Origin: Anoplopoma fimbria
Taxonomy: Eukaryota; Chordata; Actinopteri; Perciformes; Anoplopomatidae
NCBI RefSeq assembly: GCF_027596085.1
Contig: NC_072463.1
Location: forward strand, 2,668,038 to 2,732,037
Length of the DNA stretch: 64,000 bases
Direction of reading: 5' to 3'
Both the position numbers and the translations under genes were made by a program. This document shows, one piece after another, positions 1-63,400 of this stretch (position 1 is the stretch's first letter; each line of letters begins with the position of its first letter). The notes below the pieces were generated by a model. It did not search any database and was not told the DNA's origin. It worked only from the letters and a program-made list of their open reading frames with translations.

Positions 1-232
1 TCATTTAGTAAATGATGCTCCATTTAGAGTCAAACAGACCATAAAGCAGGGGATGCTTTAGGGCGGGGCTACACACTGATTGACAGGTCGACACCAGAGA
101 CGTATACGGCGTCTCTACGTCACATCTTCACATTCCAAATATGGTCACTTCTGTTTACTGGTTGCAAAAAAACAGCATGGCGACGGCCAAAACGCCAAAC
201 TCAAGGCTTCAAAACATCATTTCACAAACCAA
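1..232 (+). repeat. R1 interspersed repeat, copy 1 (cut by window start)
   Basis: Positions 1-72 match the last 72 bases of the R1 core exactly, and 73-125 match the copies at 11.7, 38.0 and 63.2 kb. Beyond about 130 the match weakens. An ATGGCGACGGCC motif survives near 177-188, and similarity ends near 232 at CACAAACCAAT. The 5' part lies outside the window. R1 is a non-coding family; small open frames in it (such as one starting MTGRHQRR) recur with the repeat and are not genes. Confidence 0.9.
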
Positions 233-427
233 TCACGAATTCACAAACAACGTGGACAAACAGACAAAGCTATGTGATCCCAGCATAAATTCAAATTGTG
301 GCTTGCAGTGTGAACAAAGCCTGAATTACACTCTCATTCTTTTCAAGCAAATTGGATTTTTCCAGCAAAAAATTGCTGCATATTTCTGAAATGTGTAGAA
401 GAGAAGGCTGAACTGGTTAAATTCCAG

Positions 428-582
<155 letters not shown>

Positions 583-2584: not shown

Positions 2585-2644
2585 CACACACACACACACA
2601 CACACACAAACACAGGTGCACACACACACACACACACACACACA
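2585..2644. repeat. Interrupted CA microsatellite
   Basis: Two CA blocks (2585-2608 and 2619-2644) separated by AACACAGGTG. A degenerate TG block lies nearby at about 2440-2462. Confidence 0.95.
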
Positions 2645-2857
2645 CTCATTCAACCACACACCTTTAAAGAAAAAATAAACAAGGCCTGACTTTCACACCG
2701 TGACTCTCTCCTCATCAGACCAACACACTCCTGACGTTAAAGGACACCAACTCTGAGGGCTGTGATGATTCCTGTTAGCATTGTTTAACTTTGGATCAGG
2801 TCACATATTTAAATAAATAGTTAGGATTAAGTAAACCCAAATTACTTTTCGGACAAT

Positions 2858-3580
2858 TGAGACAAGTCCAAGTATTTTGGGAAAAGTCCATATCAGGTAA
2901 AGAAAGAAAAACTAAAGAAAAAGACAAGTCAGGTCTCAAGTCATTTCAGAAACATTGTTGTTGTTTCCATTGTTAGCACTGTTAGCTTCTAGCCGCCGCC
3001 ATGTTGAGAGCCACGTGGAGGCAATCCCTTAATCATAGATAAATTCGGAAAAAAGCACCTTTCAATAAAAGTCTACAAAGACAAGTCCAAGTCAATGGTC
3101 AAGCCATTTGAGAAAAAAGTCAAAGTCAAACTCCGTCAAAACAAGTTCAAGTCATTTAAGAAAAGTTGAAATCGAGTCACCATTCAAAGGCAATCAAGAC
3201 AAGTTCAAGTGCTTTAGAGACCAAGTCCAAGGCAAACGTCAAACTCCAGGGCGATAAGTCCAAGTTAAGAATAGTCGAGATGTTTCCAAGTTAAGGGTCA
3301 TGTTGTTTTAGACAGGTCCAAGTCTTTCAAAGCAAGTATCAAGTCAAGTCTCATCAAAGTCCACAGTAACAAGTCAAAGTCGAATTCTGTGTAAAACAAT
3401 ATATGCATTCAAGAGGCATTGAAGGTATTTAGACAGGTCTAGTTCATGTCCTAAGTCTTTTATAGCGAGCCTCAAGTCAAGTCCCAGTTCAGTCTCAAGA
3501 CAAAGTCAGTTCAGACATAGTCACAAGATAAAGGACTGTTTAAAGTCACATGTTGATTAAGAAATGTCCGAGTCAAGATC
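2858..3580 (+). repeat. Degenerate AAGTC-type minisatellite
   Basis: About 700 bp in which AAGTC, CAAGTC and CAAGTCCAAGTC recur dozens of times (for example 2863-2874, 3080-3091 and 3335-3346), spaced by variable A-rich linkers such as TTTGAGAAAA. There is no open frame. This looks like an old tandem array that has decayed, not a transposon. Confidence 0.75.
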
Positions 3581-5938
3581 ATTTGAGCATCAAATTATTT
3601 TTATTTTGTTTGGATTAACCATAGAAGAGGCATCTGTCCTGTCAAAAATCAAGGTTGACCATAAAGTTTAAGATGACAAAATAATTTTAGTTTTGTCTTT
3701 GTTTACTTGAAGCATAAATTGAAGAAGACACAAACCTGCCCACAGCTGTCGACTACATTTTTGGGGGAATTTCACTGTCATGCTGTGCAGATTAAGTTTT
3801 TTCTCAATATTACCACAAATTGATGAGTGAATGTATTTGTACATCATTTTGTATCCTGTTTTTTACAGCCACAATGTTTAAAACAACCCAAAATACTTCA
3901 TTACAGTCGGGGATACATGTTGATCATACAACACAGAAAGGTTGAGAAAAGGCACCCAAACAACTCCATCTTGATTAAATATTAAAAAAGGAATAAATCA
4001 ACACATCATGACCTCAAAGACCCCTCATTGCTACTGAATGTTCCTCTCATCTTGACGGACAGGAACATAAAACATGTGTTTTTCTACATGATAAAGTCAT
4101 ATTTGTGTGGCGAACACATCCTCAGATAACCTTCCATCTTTAATTCAATCACCATCAGCTGTTCTGTAAACGGCTCTCTAATAAAACACAAGCTGCTCGG
4201 CTCACACAGTTTCCTCCCTCACTCAATTAGCTCGTCTGTAACGCAGCGAAACAACGAGCAAACACGTCCTCCCGCCTCATTATTTACTCTCCGTCAGGCC
4301 ACTGCTGCATGAAATCCTTGTAACGCTCAGTTTTCTGTGTTTTCTCACAAACACACCGATCCATCACGGTCCTGCTCTTTGAAAATGAGACGTGTTTCGC
4401 ATTTCAAAAGACGGGTGAAGACACAGATTTTAGTAGTTGGATAATATCACAAACTCACACAGCAGATGTAATAACAACAGTTCTGGTATTGTTATAAACT
4501 ATGTCTAAGGCTAATATTGTTATAATAAGTTTGACCTGTACTAAATGCCAGTTAATGAAAGATGTATTTTTGTATTACATTTGTGACTTATTGTACATGG
4601 AGGCTCATTACCAAAGAGCTGTTGTTAAAGGAGTAATTAACCCCGAAACATTTTAATTTGTATATTGTACTAACCTCTCAAGGCACTTTATGGTCCCAGA
4701 AAAACTTTTCTAATGAATAGAGTGAAGGAGAACAGAGTGCCCAGAACATTTGCAAACAGATTTTGACAGAGGCCGCATGAAAGACTCCAAGAGGCTCCAC
4801 AACATCTCAAAAACTACATTTTGTATTTTCAGATTGTCCTACCGTGAAGGAATTTGTTTAGCAATGGTTTCCCAAAAATAGTTGTGTTTGGATTTGAACC
4901 CACAATTGGAAAAGAGGGAGTTGGATAAAGCTGCATAGGAATATTTTGTTACTTTTTTGCTGTTTTTTTGAATTTCGTTTGCTCTCCACCGCAGTCTGTT
5001 TGTACTGATTTGCTTTCATTTTTCAGGCACTTTTTTGTTATCCCGAGATTGATTACAAGTTGATTATCTCGTTATCTCAGCGTGTATAGTCATCTTTATG
5101 CATGCTTACATTGGATTCATGATCTCGGATTGACATTGTAAATTATAAGAAGAAACAACCTTTTGTTTTCTCAAAGTAACAAGTGTTTTTTCCAGCTCTC
5201 CAAGGGCATTCTCTTGAGAGCTTGGGGTAACTGCACTATAAAAAACATAATCGCAAACACAGCTGTTCTCTGCTTCTGTAGCTTTACGACATTCAATAGA
5301 AAACTTTTTCTTGGACCAACTCACCCTGCAGTAGCTGAACCCTTTGACCTCAGTGTCTCAGACCTCCAGCCCATCCTTCCTCTGCAACCAGACCGCGTCC
5401 TAACTACAACTAATAAAGCAATCAGGATTCTGGGCTGAAACTGTGTCGTAAAGTAAAAACCTCGGTGCATGTGAGCTGAAAGTTCAAGTACGGGAGCACC
5501 ACTACAAATCTAATTTAGTGGAATGTTCCTAAATTGGGTAATAAAAACAATATTTCTTGTCGTACATGGGGAAATACCCTTCTAAATCTTTATTAACGTC
5601 TCTCATTGGAAGCAGCAGGAGTCCTGAGGTAACACACAACTCTATGGTTTGATAAAAATGAACAAAGGTGCTGTTTGGATAAGAATATATAAGACAAGTT
5701 AACCTAAAATGTAAATTCTTCACCCTGAATCATTTAAATGAATTCAATTTCACATTCTTTTTGTGTTTACTCTATGGATATATTATTTCTTCCTTTCATG
5801 TATTTTCTGTTGATTATGTGGATTGTTCTCCTTTTATCTGTTCTGATGACACTTTGTTTACACAGAATTCACATGAATAATTAATAAGGTTTGTTGTGCT
5901 TCATACTCCGTTTCCAAGGTCGGCATTTTAAAGTGTTC
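3581..5938. other. Unassigned non-coding stretch
   Basis: About 2.4 kb of AT-rich DNA with no long array, no second copy elsewhere in the window and no convincing exon. The open frame at 5163-5438 (91 codons) lacks family resemblance and is probably chance. A somewhat GC-richer patch lies at 4140-4380. Confidence 0.6.
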
Positions 5939-6285: not shown

Positions 6286-10569
<4,284 letters not shown>

Positions 10570-11416: not shown

Positions 11417-11907
11417 TTGGCAACCAGGCAGCAACCGCCGGTTTTGATGAGTGAAGCCGACGCTTCATGTCTTCTCTCTACTGTCCAGCAGGGGGCGACT
11501 CCTCTGGTTGTATAGAAGTCTATGAGAAAATGACTCTACTTCTCTCTTGATTTATTCCCTCAGTAAACATTGTAAACATGAGTTTATGGTCTCAATCTCT
11601 AGTTTCAAGTCTTCTTCAATACAGCATGATGTTCATTTAGTAAATGATGCTCCATTTAGAGTCAAACAGACCATAAAGCAGGGGATGCTTTAGGGCGGGG
11701 CTACACACTGATTGACAGGTCGACACCAGAGACGTATACGGCGTCTCTACGTCACTCCTCCTCAGTCCAAATATGGTCACTCCTTGTTCACTGGTTGCAA
11801 AAAGCCAAGATGGCCACGGCCGTAATCCAAGATGGCGACGGCCAAATCGCAGATCTAAAGGCTTCAAAACTTCAGTCCACAAACCAATGGGTGACGTCAC
11901 GACGACT
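11417..11907 (+). repeat. R1 interspersed repeat, copy 2
   Basis: Near-complete copy. 5' segment from about 11417 (GGCAACCAGGCAGCAACC, then GTGAAGCC), the identical 214-bp core at 11491-11704, then the subfamily-I segment ACACTGATTGACAGGTCGAC. The 3' part has two AAGATGGC motifs (11808-11815 and 11829-11836) and a palindromic TGACGTCA at 11892-11899. The TATATACAGTCTATG end seen in other copies is missing. The class (SINE-like or non-autonomous DNA transposon) is not settled by the sequence. Confidence 0.92.
11481..11500 (+). promoter_or_regulatory. CTCF-like motif in R1 copy 2
   Basis: CCAGCAGGGGGCGAC matches the vertebrate CTCF core consensus (CCACCAGGGGGCGC type) closely. It lies at the 5' edge of the R1 core. 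Binding is inferred from motif resemblance only. Confidence 0.4.
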
Positions 11908-12659
<752 letters not shown>

Positions 12660-16282: not shown

Positions 16283-18209
<1,927 letters not shown>

Positions 18210-20424: not shown

Positions 20425-21030
20425 GTTAAAGTTACTGTGAGGAACTTTTAACTGGTTCTGAATCAGTCTCAGTTTAGTCCTGATCCTCTATAGACCTCCA
20501 TCAGTAAACCAGACCATCAGAGAGAAGATCGTCTGTTTCTATAAAGTTATTCTTAAAGCTCGTCATCGGAGCCACCGGGTCGGATTCTGGAGAAACCAGA
20601 TGAAATCATGAAGGTTCACCAGTAAAACTCCTTCAGATCAGAGACCAGTCCACCGTGGACAGACCCAGATCCAGCAGAGACCAGTCCACCGTGGACAGAC
20701 CCAGATCCGGCCTCCCTGCAGCCTTCGACCTCCACTCGGAGCTCCGGAGGAAGTAGGAGAGCTCAGCTCCCGGCAGCAGCAGCGTCTCCTCCTCCTCCTC
20801 CTCCTCCTCCTCCTCCAGGAGCAGAGCTTCTCTATATTGCACAAAACGTTAAATCCAATTATAATGAATGATAAATAATCTGCTACTTCATTCCCCTTCA
20901 AGAACTCCGCCATGTTTTCTACAGTAGCCCGGAACGGACAAACCAATCACTGGCTCTACAGAGAGCCTTTCACATTTTTTTTAACGGTACCTGAAGGCAC
21001 CGTAGTTCTTCGACACTTTTGTAAAACCGC
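20425..21030 (+). repeat. Family D repeat, long copy
   Basis: Positions 20460-20620 match 48780-48937 with about four substitutions, beginning at ATCAGTCTCAGTTTAGTCCT. Beyond the shared part it continues through a tandem duplication, a CTC run (20785-20816) and a segment around CAAGAACTCCGCCATGTTTT, to about 21030. From memory this is the order of a known teleost interspersed repeat. Non-coding. Confidence 0.75.
20641..20708 (+). repeat. Tandem duplication, 36-bp period
   Basis: The 32-bp unit starting GAGACCAGTCCACCGTGGAC occurs at 20641-20672 and again at 20677-20708, identical, inside the family D repeat. Confidence 0.97.
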
Positions 21031-24268: not shown

Positions 24269-24452
<184 letters not shown>

Positions 24453-28140: not shown

Positions 28141-28372
28141 CGTATTAGTCTGTTGCACTTATTGTATTCGTATTAGTTTGTTTCTGTACTTTTGCTCTGG
28201 TTTATGCTTTTAGATGCTTGTTTAAGAAAGGAGATGCACTTATGACTTCTGGTGACTAGTAGTTCTCTTGAATACCTATGTTGAATACACTTATTGTAAG
28301 TCGCTTTGGATAAAAGTGTCTGCTAAATGACTGTAATGTAAATGAATGTAATGTAATAATGTAATGTAATGT
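28141..28372 (+). mobile_element. 5'-truncated non-LTR retrotransposon 3' end
   Basis: The motif GTCGCTTTGGATAAAAGTGT followed by CTGCTAAATGAC, then a (TAATG)n tail at 28333-28372, is the typical 3' end of L2-clade LINEs, and of SINEs that borrow it, in teleosts. The upstream 190 bp reads as 3' UTR; no reverse transcriptase frame is present. The clade is from memory. Confidence 0.7.
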
Positions 28373-28479
28373 AAAAGAACTGCAAACTGCAAAAAATCTT
28401 GCATTCCCCTTAGGGATTTTACAGCTTTCTTATCGGATGGTTTTTATGATTCGTATAACTGTTTATTGAGTATGTGTTT

Positions 28480-31139: not shown

Positions 31140-31545
31140 TTGCAACCATGAGGCACCCTCCGGCTCTGCAGAGTGAAGCCAATGCTTCATGTCTTAAAGC
31201 TGCATTCTCTCTACTGTCCATCAGGGGGCGACTCCTCTGGTTGTATAGAAGTCTATGAGAAAATGACTCTACTTCTCTCTTGATTTATTCCCTCAGTAAA
31301 CATTGTAAACATGAGTTTATGGTCTCAATCTCTAGTTTCAAGTCTTCTTCAATACAGCATGATGTTCATTTAGTAAATGATGCTCCATTTAGAGTCAAAC
31401 AGACCATAAAGCAGGGGATGCTTTAGGGCGGGGCTACTGTGATTGACAGGTCGCTGCTGCTACCAGAGCTGTATATGGCGTCTCTACGTCACTCCTCTAC
31501 ATTCCAATATGGTCACGTCTGTTCATTGGTGACAGCCGTAATTCA
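31140..31545 (+). repeat. R1 interspersed repeat, copy 3 (subfamily II)
   Basis: 5' segment from about 31140 with GTGAAGCCAATGCTTCATG, then the identical 214-bp core at 31224-31437. After GGGGCTAC it departs from subfamily I (TGTGATTGACAGGTCGCTGC). It fades near 31545 and lacks the YY1-like motif and the 3' end. Confidence 0.92.
31214..31233 (+). promoter_or_regulatory. CTCF-like motif in R1 copy 3
   Basis: CCATCAGGGGGCGAC; one base differs from the copies at 11481 and 39840. Confidence 0.35.
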
Positions 31546-37440: not shown

Positions 37441-37882
37441 CCATCAGAGTACGTGTGAGTGTGTGGAAAACGCTATGCATAAAGCAATAAGGACGGAGGG
37501 ACAGATTGCTATTAGGTAACAAGAAAATTAAAGTTTCAGGTCGTTTTGAGGTTGCTCGTTACTCGTTGCCATTCGTGGGTTTCATCACTGGCTTCATTGA
37601 TGAGCTTCACCTGCTCTCTTGTCCTGCTATGCTCACTATGACATCATATCATTTTGTGTTTATAAAATGAAAATAAATGCATTAAAATCGCTCAAAAGTA
37701 ACAACTTAAAAGGTTTGATTTACTTGAAATCAGGTTCAGTTATTCATGGCCCTGAGAGGATGAATCCTTTTGACTTTGGTGTTTGCCTGAAATTTGATCT
37801 TCTCTCAACCATAGACTGTATATAAGAAGTGGACGAGGTCATTGTGATGTCACCCATTGGTTTGTGGACTGATGTTCGACGA

Positions 37883-37990
37883 TTTCGCAGTCGCCATCTT
37901 GGCTTTTTTGAGACCGATGAACAGAAGGTTTGTGGATCTTGGCTTTTTCGCAGTCGCCATCTTGGCTTTTTTGAGACCGATGAACAGAAG
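37883..37990 (-). repeat. 45-bp duplication within R1 copy 4
   Basis: 37883-37927 and 37946-37990 are identical (TTTCGCAGTCGCCATCTTGG onwards), period 63 bp. Each carries one YY1-like motif, GTCGCCATCTTGG on the plus strand. Confidence 0.95.
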
Positions 37991-38269
37991 TTACCATATC
38001 TTGAATGTGAAGATGTGACGTAGAGACGCCGTATACGTCTCTGGTGTCGACCTGTCAATCAGTGTGTAGCCCCGCCCTAAAGCATCCCCTGCTTTATGGT
38101 CTGTTTGACTCTAAATGGAGCATCATTTACTAAATGAACATCATGCTGTATTGAAGAAGACTTGAAACTAGAGATTGAGACCATAAACTCATGTTTACAA
38201 TGTTTACTGAGGGAATAAATCAAGAGAGAAGTAGAGTCATTTTCTCATAGACTTCTATACAACCAGAGG

Positions 38270-38289
38270 AGTCGCCCCCTGGTGGACAG
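38270..38289 (-). promoter_or_regulatory. CTCF-like motif in R1 copy 4
   Basis: On the minus strand CCACCAGGGGGCGAC, differing from the strongest published CTCF core only at the last positions. It faces the opposite way to the motifs at 11.5, 31.2 and 39.8 kb. Confidence 0.45.
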
Positions 38290-38368
38290 GAGAGAGAATG
38301 CAGCTTTAAGACATTTCTTCATTAACTTTACATGGCAGAAGCAGAGGTTGCTGCCTGGTCCCACCAAA

Positions 38369-39814
38369 AGGTCAAGGGTTCCACTAGTAGCAATATTTCC
38401 ATCCACCTCAGCTTCACTTTAAGATTAAGGCTAATGTTGACATGCTAACTTGCTAAACATTAACATATCACACTTTCAGAGCAAACATATAATTGACGCT
38501 TTCCAGACGGTTGTATCACCAGAAACTTAATTACAAGGCTCGCTTGTTACATCTGCTGCTCGTCATTTAAACGCAGTAAAATCATAAAATAATGTAGCAG
38601 TAGTGTAGTATCTAACTGCACTACTGCTGTAAGCAATAAAGGTTCTTATAATACTATACTCATGAGCTTGACTTATTAGAAACCAGGCTTGATTTCTGTT
38701 GTAATTAGTACCACCGAGAGGTCTAGACGTCTTTTGATCCATCAACAAATCCGTGTCTACTGGGAGGCCAGTGTGAATGTCTGAGTGATTCACACTGAAT
38801 GCTGAGTTTGTTTATTTGGAGGGATTTTAATTAAGCTCTGAATATAGATTATCCACAAAATAAAAAAAATGAAGTCTGGGTTCGTATATCTGCACATGCA
38901 AATAATGAAGAATAACTGAGACGGTTGGGGAAAAAGGAAAATAAACTATTGTGCCTGTGAAAACCAGAAAAACCCCCAAAGGCATAAAAACGTCTCACTC
39001 CAACAAAAGAAGAAGTGCAGAGAGGAGAGAAAATCAAGATGACAAACAGACTCAGGTGAGAAAGCAGCAGAAGTCAAGTTTGGTACCGACTGTGAAAAGC
39101 TAAACCTGCTGCACAGAACCACCTCCTCCTGTCGGCGGCGTTTCCATATCGTGGTGATCGGAGGGGAGCGGCGGCGGCGGCGGCGGCGGCTCTGCAGGCA
39201 TCTGCTCGTTTTGTTAGGAGCTGTGTGCGAGTAAACACTTTCTGCTCGCTACCATCTGTCCAAGCTCAGATCTGCAGGAGAGTTGGCAGCCTTGGCTGGA
39301 AGAGATCGAGAGGATAGGGAGCGAGAGAGGAGGGAAGAAAGGGAGGAAACGAGATGAAACGAGAGGATACTAGGGACCGGGAGGAGAGACGGAGGGAGAA
39401 CAGCGACTTCTGAGCTTGTAGATATTAAAAATACAGGACATTTTGTGATCAAATCCTTTTGGGTTTTTTTTTTCCCCAATTAGATTTTTTATGTAATATA
39501 CAATTAAAAAAAATGTCCTGAAACATTCAAACAATAAACTAACATTTGTGCCAACACTGAATTATGGGTAAACCCAAATTGCTTCCAACAACCAAATGAC
39601 TGCAGAGAGAAATGTGTGCAGCGGATAAGCAAAACATAAAGAGGGAAATAAAAATAAAAAAAATGTTTTACTGCCTGATAAAACCAAATGATAGGAATAT
39701 TAGTCTGCATTATAGGGATGTTCATCAAGCTTGGAATCCACTTACACCTGGCACTCACAGAGGTGGTCTGGGACGCATTTAACCACATGTCTTTTGCAGC
39801 GTAAATGCTAATGT
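38369..39814. other. Unassigned stretch with a GCG run
   Basis: A (GCG)n run at 39168-39190 sits in a GC-rich patch (39115-39200). A purine-rich segment follows at 39290-39400. A9 near 39656. No gene. Confidence 0.6.
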
Positions 39815-40213
39815 GTGTCTTAAAGCTGCATTCTCTCTCCTGTCCACCAGGGGGCGACTCCTCTGGTTGTATAGAAGTCTATGAGAAAATGACTCTACTT
39901 CTCTCTTGATTTATTCCCTCAGTAAACATTGTAAACATGAGTTTATGGTCTCAATCTCTAGTTTCAAGTCTTCTTCAATACAGCATGATGTTCATTTAGT
40001 AAATGATGCTCCATTTAGAGTCAAACAGACCATAAAGCAGGGGATGCTTTAGGGCGGGGCTACGTTGTGACTGACAGGTTGCACTCCTCCCCTTTCTGAA
40101 TAATAACTTCCATTCATTGGCTGCAAGAAAAGAACAAAAAAATAAAAAAAAGGCCGTAATCCAAGATGGCGACGGCAAAATTGCCGAACTCGAGGCCTCA
40201 AATGGCAAGTTTC
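39815..40213 (+). repeat. R1 interspersed repeat, copy 5 (subfamily II)
   Basis: Begins at TGTCTTAAAGCTGCATTC, has the identical core at 39850-40063, then diverges after GGGGCTAC. It keeps CCAAGATGGCGAC at 40161-40173. It runs directly into a family B repeat at about 40214. Confidence 0.92.
39840..39859 (+). promoter_or_regulatory. CTCF-like motif in R1 copy 5
   Basis: CCACCAGGGGGCGAC, same sequence as copy 4 and in the opposite orientation, 1.57 kb away. Confidence 0.45.
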
Positions 40214-40430
40214 AAACCAAACAAAGTATTTAACGATCTTTTCCTGAACCTAACTAAGTATTTCATGACCTTTTTCCTTAGTAGTTTTGTTGCCTAAACC
40301 TAACTGAGTTTCCTGTGAAGACGAAAGTATATTTTGAAAAGACTGTATGCATGTAACAAGCAGAAAAACACAATAACAAGGAATAACTTATTGTCGGATA
40401 TCATACGAACCGTTGTATGAGGATACGTTG
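40214..40430 (+). repeat. Family B repeat, copy 1
   Basis: AAACCAAAC start, then GCCTAAACCTAACTGAG, TTTCCTGTGAAGACGAAAGT, TTTTGAAAAGACTGTATGCA and a GGATACGTTGC end. Aligns with 45262-45480 and 61140-61300. Non-coding. Confidence 0.8.
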
Positions 40431-44910: not shown

Positions 44911-44958
44911 TTCCCCATGGGAACAAGGAAGGAATCGCCTTGATTCATTCGTTACATT

Positions 44959-45197
44959 CATAGACTTTACATAAGCAGTGGACGTAGTCGTCGTGACATC
45001 ACCCGTTGGTTCGAGACTGCCGTTTTGAAGCCTCTAGTTTGACGTTTTGGCCGTCGCCATCTTGGCTTTTTTGCAACCAGTGAACAAAAGTTAGCATATT
45101 TGGACTGTGGAGGAGTGACGTAGAGAGGCTTTATGTATATTGCTCTGGTAGTGGCAGCGACTTGTCAATCACAAGGTAGCCCCGCCCTAAAGCATAC
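44959..45197 (-). repeat. R1 interspersed repeat, copy 6 (old, 5'-truncated)
   Basis: Keeps the 3' terminus (plus strand CATAGACTTTACATAAG) and runs to GCCCCGCCCTAAAGCAT, then stops before the core. It is much more diverged than the other copies. The GTCGCCATCTTGG (YY1-like) motif at 45053-45065 is still intact. Confidence 0.88.
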
Positions 45198-45261
45198 TCT
45201 GTAGACCCCAAGTTTGAAACACTTCTGCATTGGTTTCATCCATCAGAAATGGAGGTATTTT

Positions 45262-48748: not shown

Positions 48749-48937
48749 CTGTTTAAAGTAACTTCTATCTGGTTGTGGATCAGTCTCAGTTTAGTCCTGA
48801 TCCTCTATAGACCTCCATCAGTAAACCAGACCATCAGAGAGGAGATCGTCCGTTTTTATAAAGTTATTCTTAAAGCTCGTCATTGGAGCCACCGGGTCGG
48901 ATTCTGGAGAAACCAGATGAAATCATGAAGGTTCACC
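48749..48937 (+). repeat. Family D repeat, 3'-truncated copy
   Basis: Matches 20425-20620 at about 97% where aligned, with a small deletion near its start, and stops at GAAGGTTCACC. The open frame at 48746-48928 lies inside it and is not a gene. Confidence 0.9.
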
Positions 48938-49931
48938 GAGGGATTAGGGATTTTCCGAAGGGACTCTGGTGCTCAGAGGCACTACCACTGTTGTCCACAG
49001 GGACCGCCAAAATCAACACAAAATGAAAGATCCTTCGAGTAGATTCAAACAACAGAGAAATAATTTGCATTGTATTAAACAAAGGCCTATTACATACAAT
49101 ATTTAGCACAGGTTAAATGCTAACTGTATGTATTTGTGCATTTACTCGTGCAAAAAAAGCATGAAGAAATAACATAAATAATCAGTCAGTAATCGTGCTG
49201 CACCAACAACCTGATAAAGTTTGCCTGATAAGTCAACTTATCAGGCAGCAGCCATTAAAGTCTAACTTTAGCCCCAGTCCCAGCACTCTGGCACCGCCGT
49301 CTAAATATGGAAACCCACATGGAGTCAGACTTTTCCATTTGTTTGGACAACATTTCAAAAAGATCCAAACTGTGTCACAGATGCAGAAAAGGCAGATTTG
49401 AGCAGTGTAAATTCAGCGTTTGGAAACAGCGCCTGGCTCCCTGAAGCGTCACAGTGCCAAGCTTGACTTTGTTCTATTTTAAGCTGCTCGGCTGATACAA
49501 CCTCCTGGGTGAGAGGAGAGTGAGGAAACCTGCCTTACTGTGGCAGAGAGTTTCCTACCCCCCCAAAAAAAGATGGGTTTTTTCCTCTAGTTAGAGGAGT
49601 TTCAATCACGTATCATGACTTCAGATGAAGATTGGAGCATTTTCAGAAGTCGCGTTGCTCTAGTTGGAAAAAGTGGAGACACAGACGCAAATACTAAAAT
49701 ACTTTAAAGTGGAGCAAAATAACTCTGGCCCTCTAATCATTAACAGAACAGATCAGCAAGTTTAGCTAAAACTTTCAGCTCTGGACGACGATATAACACT
49801 GGAAAGATGAGGGAGTTCACACGTCAGGAAACAAAAAGAGAATTACACTATATAAACAAAACAGAAAGACATGTAACTCCCATATGCAACAGTCCTTCCA
49901 AAGCAAAGAGTATAAATCTGCTAATATTTCA
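48938..49931. other. Unassigned stretch
   Basis: AT-rich, no arrays, no gene recognised. Confidence 0.6.
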
Positions 49932-62981: not shown

Positions 62982-63400
62982 GTATAGAAGTCTATGAGAA
63001 AATGACTCTACTTCTCTCTTGATTTATTCCCTCAGTAAACATTGTAAACATGAGTTTATGGTCTCAATCTCTAGTTTCAAGTCTTCTTCAATACAGCATG
63101 ATGTTCATTTAGTAAATGATGCTCCATTTAGAGTCAAACAGACCATAAAGCAGGGGATGCTTTAGGGCGGGGCTACACACTGATTGACAGGTCGACACCA
63201 GAGACGCATACGGCGTCTCTACGTCACTCCTCCTCAGTCCATATATGGTAATTTCTGTTTATTGGTTGTGAAAAAAAAACATGGCAACAGCCATATTCCA
63301 AGATGGCGACGGAGAAATCGCTGAACTCAAGCCTTCATAACTGCAGTCCACAAACTGTGGTGTCACAATGACTACATCCACTTCTTATATACAGCCTATG
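62982..63400 (+). repeat. R1 interspersed repeat, copy 7 (5'-truncated)
   Basis: Starts abruptly inside the core at GTATAGAAGTCTATGAG, is identical to the other cores to 63176, and follows subfamily I with one change (CGCATACGG). It keeps CCAAGATGGCGAC at 63298-63310 and reaches the 3' terminus (TATATACAGCCTATG) at 63400. It lacks the CTCF-like motif because of the 5' truncation. Confidence 0.93.

What the first reader, a model, noticed from the sequence alone, without database searches (positions are those of the whole stretch)
11491..11704. R1 core is identical in all young copies while the rest of the element diverges
The 214-bp block at 11491-11704, 31224-31437, 38066-38279 (minus) and 39850-40063 reads as the same sequence with no indel or substitution. 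62982-63176 matches over 195 bp and 1-72 over 72 bp. The 3' halves of these copies differ by many substitutions, deletions and duplications. Uniform age cannot explain this. Options are very recent amplification of a chimeric element with assorted 3' parts, gene conversion restricted to the core, or constraint on the core.
Basis: partly seen in the sequence, partly recalled or inferred. Interest (0 to 1): 0.75.

Follow-up and report, generated by a model that had tools for sequence, protein, structure and literature searches.

The report
Overwritten core in old fish transposons
Many scattered copies of an old jumping-gene remnant in this fish genome carry the same roughly 214-letter middle, letter for letter, although their ends look old and worn, which suggests that the middles were overwritten recently from one source, or that the assembly blended them.

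Summary
The 214-bp block is exact at all four stated places, and the copy at 1-72 is a full exact core once the adjoining sequence is read. I sampled 300 kb more of the same genome. In 16 copies the core shows 5 differences in about 2,990 bases; the Y-type near tail shows 38 events in 744 bases and the near-5' strip 13 in 297 (part of the copies). Both outer ends diverge about 40% pairwise, as in old copies. Genome-wide, 2,595 places match a 200-bp core with at most 3 mismatches; the 100 listed are exact. R1 is a hAT-like non-autonomous DNA transposon with 8-bp target duplications. Two exact-core copies have decayed duplications (6/8); three diverged-core copies have 7/8, 8/8 and 8/8. Two copies are mosaic inside the core. 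Uniform age is excluded. Best reading: old insertions whose interior was overwritten in place by gene conversion strongly biased to one source. Main rivals: an assembly artefact, which only raw reads can exclude, and a young burst with chimeric ends. Constraint is unlikely.

The parts
11425..11900 (+). R1 copy c11491 (5' end CAGGCAGC at 11425, counted by hand; 3' end eroded, limit approximate); exact core 11491-11704; Y-type identity continues 65 bp past the core
31147..31530 (+). R1 copy c31224 (start counted by hand); exact core 31224-31437 joined to an older-type tail (identity to Y stops at the core end)
37810..38357 (-). R1 copy c38066m, both ends recognised (limits counted by hand); exact core 38066-38279; candidate target duplication 5 of 8 (not significant alone); direct duplication in the tail
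39805..40220 (+). R1 copy c39850, 5' truncated; exact core 39850-40063 with an older-type tail carrying a deletion (outer limits approximate)
62982..63400 (+). R1 copy c62982, 5' truncated at core position 20; exact core from the first base after the junction to 63176 (3' limit counted by hand)
1..235 (+). R1 copy c1, 3' part; with the adjoining stretch L034 it is a full exact 214-bp core (3' limit approximate)
44956..45201 (-). old R1 copy c45201m, 5' truncated near core position 189; older-type tail
11491..11704 (+). the shared core itself (214 bp): a stop in each of the six frames, no significant RNA fold

Best explanation
R1 is an old family of short (about 500-550 bp) non-autonomous, hAT-like DNA transposons. 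After insertion, the middle of many copies was overwritten in place by ectopic gene conversion, strongly biased towards one sequence variant (Y). In most sampled copies the tract covers the 214-bp core and ends at different points beyond it (in L013 and L034b it ends inside), so the core stays near zero divergence while both ends keep decaying at the age of the insertion. Shown: near-zero core divergence between worn ends, mosaics, variable tract ends, decayed target duplications in two copies. Inferred: that the process is DNA-templated conversion, that a master or driving variant is the donor, and that crowding near a chromosome end (seen at the start of C1) promotes it, because zebrafish meiotic breaks and contacts between chromosome ends concentrate near telomeres.
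For: Core 5 differences in about 2,990 bases against near tail 38/744 and near-5' 13/297; against the first ~52 bp of the Y tail alone 5/416, Fisher p=0.004. U-shaped divergence reaching old-copy levels at both ends. Exact-core copies L007 and L023 have decayed 8-bp duplications (6/8 each); diverged-core copies L013 7/8, L017 8/8 and L026 8/8 (by eye); 20 mispaired controls, at most 5/8. Mosaics inside the core: L013 has the older-type state at 17 and 194 (shared by L017 and L026) and at 177 (L026), but Y states at 45, 67, 156 and 160, and a 116-bp run free of differences except A129C, which L018a shares; such a run came up in 2 of 200,000 permutations, or 221 of 200,000 with adjacent changes merged and a run of 113 or more accepted. 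L034b is Y to 155, then older-type at 156 and 160, before a junction at 163. Tract ends vary. Whole genome: 5,611 matches to an inner 20-mer, 2,595 to the 200-mer with up to 3 mismatches. In C1:99493-2298707, counted by hand from the capped listings, 39 of 71 20-mer places are exact over 200 bp.
Against: The required bias is severe. Assuming 1e-8 mutations per base per generation (recalled), unbiased conversion among 2,600-5,600 equal donors would need about 1% of copies converted per generation, which is not credible; only a master donor, a directional sweep or another process fits. No donor locus was found. Only 3 exact-core copies have both ends recognisable, and one of them (c38066m, 5/8) is within the range of the mispaired controls. 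The flank counts are uneven: 21 of the 38 near-tail events lie in c38066m and c1, which carry another tail variant (without them 17/558), and 6 of the 13 near-5' events in c11491, while 5 of 10 copies have none. No relative or second individual was available. A short-read assembly artefact could imitate much of this.
Confidence: 0.45

Rival explanations
1. Assembly or polishing artefact: short-read correction, bubble merging or gap filling replaced the interior of a high-copy repeat by its majority sequence, while copy-specific flanks survived.
For: Bimodal core divergence (about 0 or at least 8%) and the gradient away from the flanks are what consensus snapping would give. Other repeat families in the sample are too rare to be a strong control.
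Against: Truncated copies c62982, L018a and L018b match the core right up to their junction with non-R1 DNA, where reads anchored in that DNA would reveal private variants. Single private variants survive inside the core (T58C and G210A in L034a, A129C in L018a). The first 52 bp of the Y tail, no closer to unique sequence than the core in full-length copies, keep more private changes. Other repeats in the 264 kb compared show mostly 4-35% divergence; the closest matches (84 bp exact, 73 bp at 98.6%, 176 bp at 97.7%) lie in tandem-repeat stretches.
Confidence: 0.25
2. Very recent burst of a young Y subfamily whose new copies were born chimeric, with 5' and 3' parts copied from assorted older elements (for example by template switching in gap repair).
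For: A burst easily gives thousands of near-identical cores. Several exact-core copies share a tail type. Tails carry deletions and duplications.
Against: Decayed target duplications in L007 and L023. Private changes in the Y tail exceed those in the core about 7-fold. L013 is a diverged copy with older-type edges and a Y middle.
Confidence: 0.22
3. Selective constraint on the core (RNA, protein or binding site) in every copy.
For: The region is recognisable, translated in one frame, in five database proteins from short contigs, presumably of fish origin.
Against: Diverged-core copies reach 19% core difference; no unusual RNA fold, z +1.2; every frame has a stop within the core; thousands of dispersed copies cannot plausibly all be under per-base selection (inference).
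Confidence: 0.03

Closest known systems
Gene conversion of dispersed repeats (primate Alu, yeast Ty, LTRs)
   Same: Mosaic copies, short tracts, homogenisation of dispersed repeats; named for Ty, primate SINEs and Alu in passages of PMC7251063
   Different: Here one core is near-identical in 16 of 20 sampled copies, on several chromosomes, with old ends. I recall no dispersed family so uniformly overwritten; the search listings showed none by title, which is no exhaustive search
hAT-type MITEs (non-autonomous DNA transposons; features recalled)
   Same: About 500-550 bp, no coding capacity, 8-bp target duplications, CA...TG ends, T at position 2 and A at position 7 of the left 8-mer in 10 of 13 copies each (hand count)
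   Different: No inverted repeat seen beyond CA...TG; no transposase or autonomous partner identified (none sought)
SINEs with conserved central domains (CORE-SINE, V-SINE, Deu-SINE; recalled)
   Same: Conserved middle with variable 3' parts
   Different: No retroposition hallmarks seen (8-bp duplications, no tail repeat, truncation at either end); identity far higher than between SINE families (recalled)
Crypton YR transposons
   Same: 3' end near TATGG, as in the termini of most CryptonS elements of oomycetes and diatom (PMC3212892 passages)
   Different: 8-bp target duplications argue against recombinase insertion

Membership tests
hAT superfamily (non-autonomous) | 8-bp target site duplication | tested here: met
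   L017 8/8, L013 7/8, L007 and L023 6/8, c38066m 5/8, against at most 5/8 in 20 mispaired controls; L026 8/8 by eye
hAT superfamily (non-autonomous) | duplication consensus nTnnnnAn (recalled) | tested here: met
   T at position 2 in 10/13 and A at position 7 in 10/13 left 8-mers, counted by hand: the 12 copies with a 5' end of 15/22 or better, plus L026
hAT superfamily (non-autonomous) | terminal inverted repeats of about 10 bp or more | tested here: not met
   by eye: 5' CAGGCGGCAACC against reverse complement of the 3' end CATAGACTGTAT, only CA shared (ends); so called hAT-like, not hAT
hAT superfamily (non-autonomous) | mobilised by a hAT transposase | not tested
   no autonomous partner sought
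Interlocus gene conversion | mosaic copies with donor-type tract inside recipient-type sequence | tested here: met
   L013 and L034b, permutation
Interlocus gene conversion | recipient insertion older than the converted tract | tested here: met
   decayed duplications in L007 and L023 with exact cores; only two clear cases
Interlocus gene conversion | same pattern in raw reads or in orthologues | not testable with these tools
   no reads held; the tool states that this genome has no relatives here
SINE | variable-length duplications and simple-repeat 3' tail (recalled) | tested here: not met
   8-bp duplications directly after CTATG where both ends are recognised

The most novel reading that the evidence does not exclude
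A directional, drive-like conversion sweep: one variant of an internal transposon segment has spread through thousands of pre-existing dispersed copies within roughly the last 10^5 generations, without new insertions, helped by clustering near chromosome ends during meiosis or templated by RNA/cDNA from one master copy.
Probability: 0.25. Interest if true: 0.88.

Novelty: new variant of a known kind. Interest (0 to 1): 0.62.

Why it matters
If real, the age of a repeat copy cannot be read from its core: a standard divergence estimate would call these copies brand new although their ends, and in two cases their target duplications, are old. It would also be a dispersed, non-tandem family under concerted evolution across several chromosomes, making the rate, direction and chromosomal geography of ectopic conversion in a vertebrate measurable. 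If it is an artefact, it warns that assemblies can blend the centres of high-copy short repeats.

Tried and rejected
Looked for copies outside this genome. Viral contigs: three patterns, 0 matches. Phages: no match. Prokaryote genome contigs: six 20-mer matches, all in bacterial records and taken as chance; not examined further. Papers searched for 12 element k-mers, some in variants recalled from memory: none. Protein database: 5 hits at E 0.001 or better among 9 candidates for the core frame (sequences), from short contigs of unknown host.

Rejected: Crypton circle insertion (the 3' end resembles TATGG, but 8-bp duplications); SINE; functional RNA (the only Rfam hit in the window is UnaL2); nested young insertion (older copies are collinear across both core borders). 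An early estimate of about 17,000 copies, from 27 stretches placed mostly within 3 Mb of contig starts, is superseded by the counts. A paper search for the assembly by its size found none.

Rows dropped or cut: the near-tail count used 8 of the 16 Y-core copies (those with Y-type tails; c31224 and c39850 have older tails; L018a, L018b and L008b lack one; L033, L034a, L034b were fetched later and not added). The near-5' count used 10 of 16. The divergence profile used 13 of the 16 plus four old copies. In the core count, lengths and differences were entered by hand; L034b was counted only to position 155, dropping its two older-type differences; L013 was left out as a diverged copy; large deletions (L018b, L023b) and truncations were not counted as differences; and L023b's share was entered as 74 bases where one search shows about 67, so 2,990 is some 7 too many. 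The count 5/416 was read by hand from the alignments printed. L026's 5' duplication was missed by the script and read by eye. One search timed out and one search failed; the translation and the counts were redone, the fuzzy motif scan was not repeated. In the permutation with merged changes the threshold was relaxed from 116 to 113.

Wanted but not obtained: the exact-only count of the 200-mer, the counts of the 53-bp tail with 3 mismatches (95, 99, 103, 107, 115, 124, 129, 132, 135 busy) and with 0 (125 busy), and a UnaL2 control (65 busy). Whether the list is sorted by mismatches is unknown, so '100 listed, all exact' is not a frequency; the listings are capped and show C1 only.

Full report
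Observation. The 214-bp block is exactly identical at 11491-11704, 31224-31437, 38066-38279 (minus) and 39850-40063; 62982-63176 and 1-72 are exact substrings. The neighbouring 10 kb (L034) shows that the copy at 1-72 is a full exact core.

Sample. The window is C15:2668038-2732037 of a 652-Mb genome in 7,151 contigs, the ones I sampled being chromosome-sized, 19-33 Mb. I fetched 30 stretches of 10 kb, 27 spread over C1-C18 and three within 20 kb of the window. With the window they hold 20 copies or pieces: 7 in the window, 10 in the spread stretches, 3 more beside the window. Sixteen have the majority (Y) core, exact or nearly so. L013, L017, L026 (about 92, 92 and 81% core identity) and c45201m (truncated, 26 bp of core) are old. 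L027-L031 and L036 hold none, nor do many of the other stretches.

Divergence. Over the 16 Y copies the core has 5 differences in about 2,990 bases, 0.17% (95% interval 0.05-0.39%). Outside it, in the copies that were compared, there are 38 events in 744 bases of near tail (8 copies) and 13 in 297 of near 5' (10 copies) (Fisher p 4e-22 and 1e-10). The excess is uneven: 21 of the 38 lie in c38066m and c1, which carry another tail variant (without them 17 in 558), and 6 of the 13 in c11491. Even the inner 52 bp of the Y tail have 5 events in 416 (p 0.004). Pairwise divergence of the 13 Y copies aligned is 0.41 and 0.27 at the 5' side, 0-0.012 within the core, then 0.04-0.06, 0.16, 0.17 and about 0.43 in parts of the far tail; the four old copies show 0.07-0.23 in the core and mostly 0.2-0.45 outside. 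The Y copies are thus about as worn at their ends as the old ones. Far-end values are approximate because of indels.

Anatomy. R1 runs from CAGGCGGCAACC to CTTATATACAGTCTATG with 8-bp target duplications: L017 8/8, L013 7/8, L007 6/8, L023 6/8, c38066m 5/8; L026 8/8 by eye. Twenty mispaired flanks give at most 5/8, so c38066m alone proves nothing. R1 is hAT-like in duplication length and consensus but lacks inverted repeats. The core has no significant RNA fold and a stop in every frame. Copies are truncated on either side (c62982, L018a, L018b) or deleted internally (L023b).

Overwriting. Three facts point to replacement after insertion. First, exact-core copies L007 and L023 have decayed duplications, the three diverged-core copies with both ends nearly perfect ones. 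Second, mosaics: L013 has older-type states at 17, 177 and 194, Y states at 45, 67, 156 and 160, and a 116-bp run free of differences except one it shares with L018a; L034b changes from Y to older-type at 156 before its junction. Third, identity tracts end at different places: 2-35 bp to the left and 0-65 bp to the right of the core in the eight full exact copies examined.

Scale. The inner 20-mer occurs 5,611 times and the 200-mer with up to 3 mismatches 2,595 times; reversed controls 0. The 100 places listed for the 200-mer are exact and lie in C1:105595-3431427, about 30 per Mb against a genome mean of 4. The capped lists show only C1, and five stretches at 8 or 15 Mb of C1, C2, C3, C17 and C18 have none, so enrichment at chromosome ends is indicated, not proved.

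Mechanism. Ectopic gene conversion of old copies explains mosaics, variable ends and old duplications. My estimate, assuming a recalled mutation rate of 1e-8, is that unbiased exchange among thousands of equal donors is too slow by orders of magnitude; a master donor at about 6e-6 conversions per copy per generation, or a directional sweep, would do. In zebrafish, meiotic breaks form near telomeres and about 30% of telomeres associate with other chromosome ends early in prophase (PMC6336226, abstract), a plausible setting for copies near chromosome ends. That link is inference.

Artefact. Short-read consensus snapping could mimic the pattern. Against it: truncated copies are exact right up to non-R1 DNA, single private core variants survive, and the Y tail, no closer to unique sequence, keeps more changes. 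These are arguments, not proof, and the assembly has gaps.

Verdict. Overwriting by biased conversion is my first choice at 0.45, artefact 0.25, chimeric young burst 0.22, constraint 0.03.

Noticed in passing
window 28283-28336 (+), followed by 28324-28374: UnaL2-type LINE 3' element (Rfam RF00436, 63.3 bits) followed by a short tandem tail; relatives at L018 and L020 are 89-96% identical over 200-271 bp.
   Followed up: partly
C1:99493-3431427: Listed exact R1 cores crowd the first 3.4 Mb of C1 at about 30 per Mb against a genome mean of 4, suggesting accumulation near chromosome ends; only C1 could be seen.
   Followed up: partly
window about 37810-37990 (minus): The tail of copy c38066m carries a direct duplication of about 45 bp around a CCAAGATGGCGAC motif, which resembles a YY1 site (recalled); the motif recurs in several R1 tails.
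   Followed up: no
L034:3090-3252 (minus): R1 copy joined at core position 163 to other sequence that holds a GGGCGTGGCCGC motif, perhaps another repeat.
   Followed up: no
window 20440-20785 and 48757-49034, L008:6723-7195: A dispersed sequence 95% identical over 181 bp within the window (77-99% in pieces to L008), with an internal 36-bp tandem repeat; identity unknown.
   Followed up: no
window 429-576, 10409-10568, 12504-12657, 16285-16434, 24270-24451: Long CA/AC arrays of 148 to 182 bp, four of the five perfect.
   Followed up: no
L009:3002-8001: A run of exactly 5000 N after a GT array, an assembly gap or withheld sequence.
   Followed up: no
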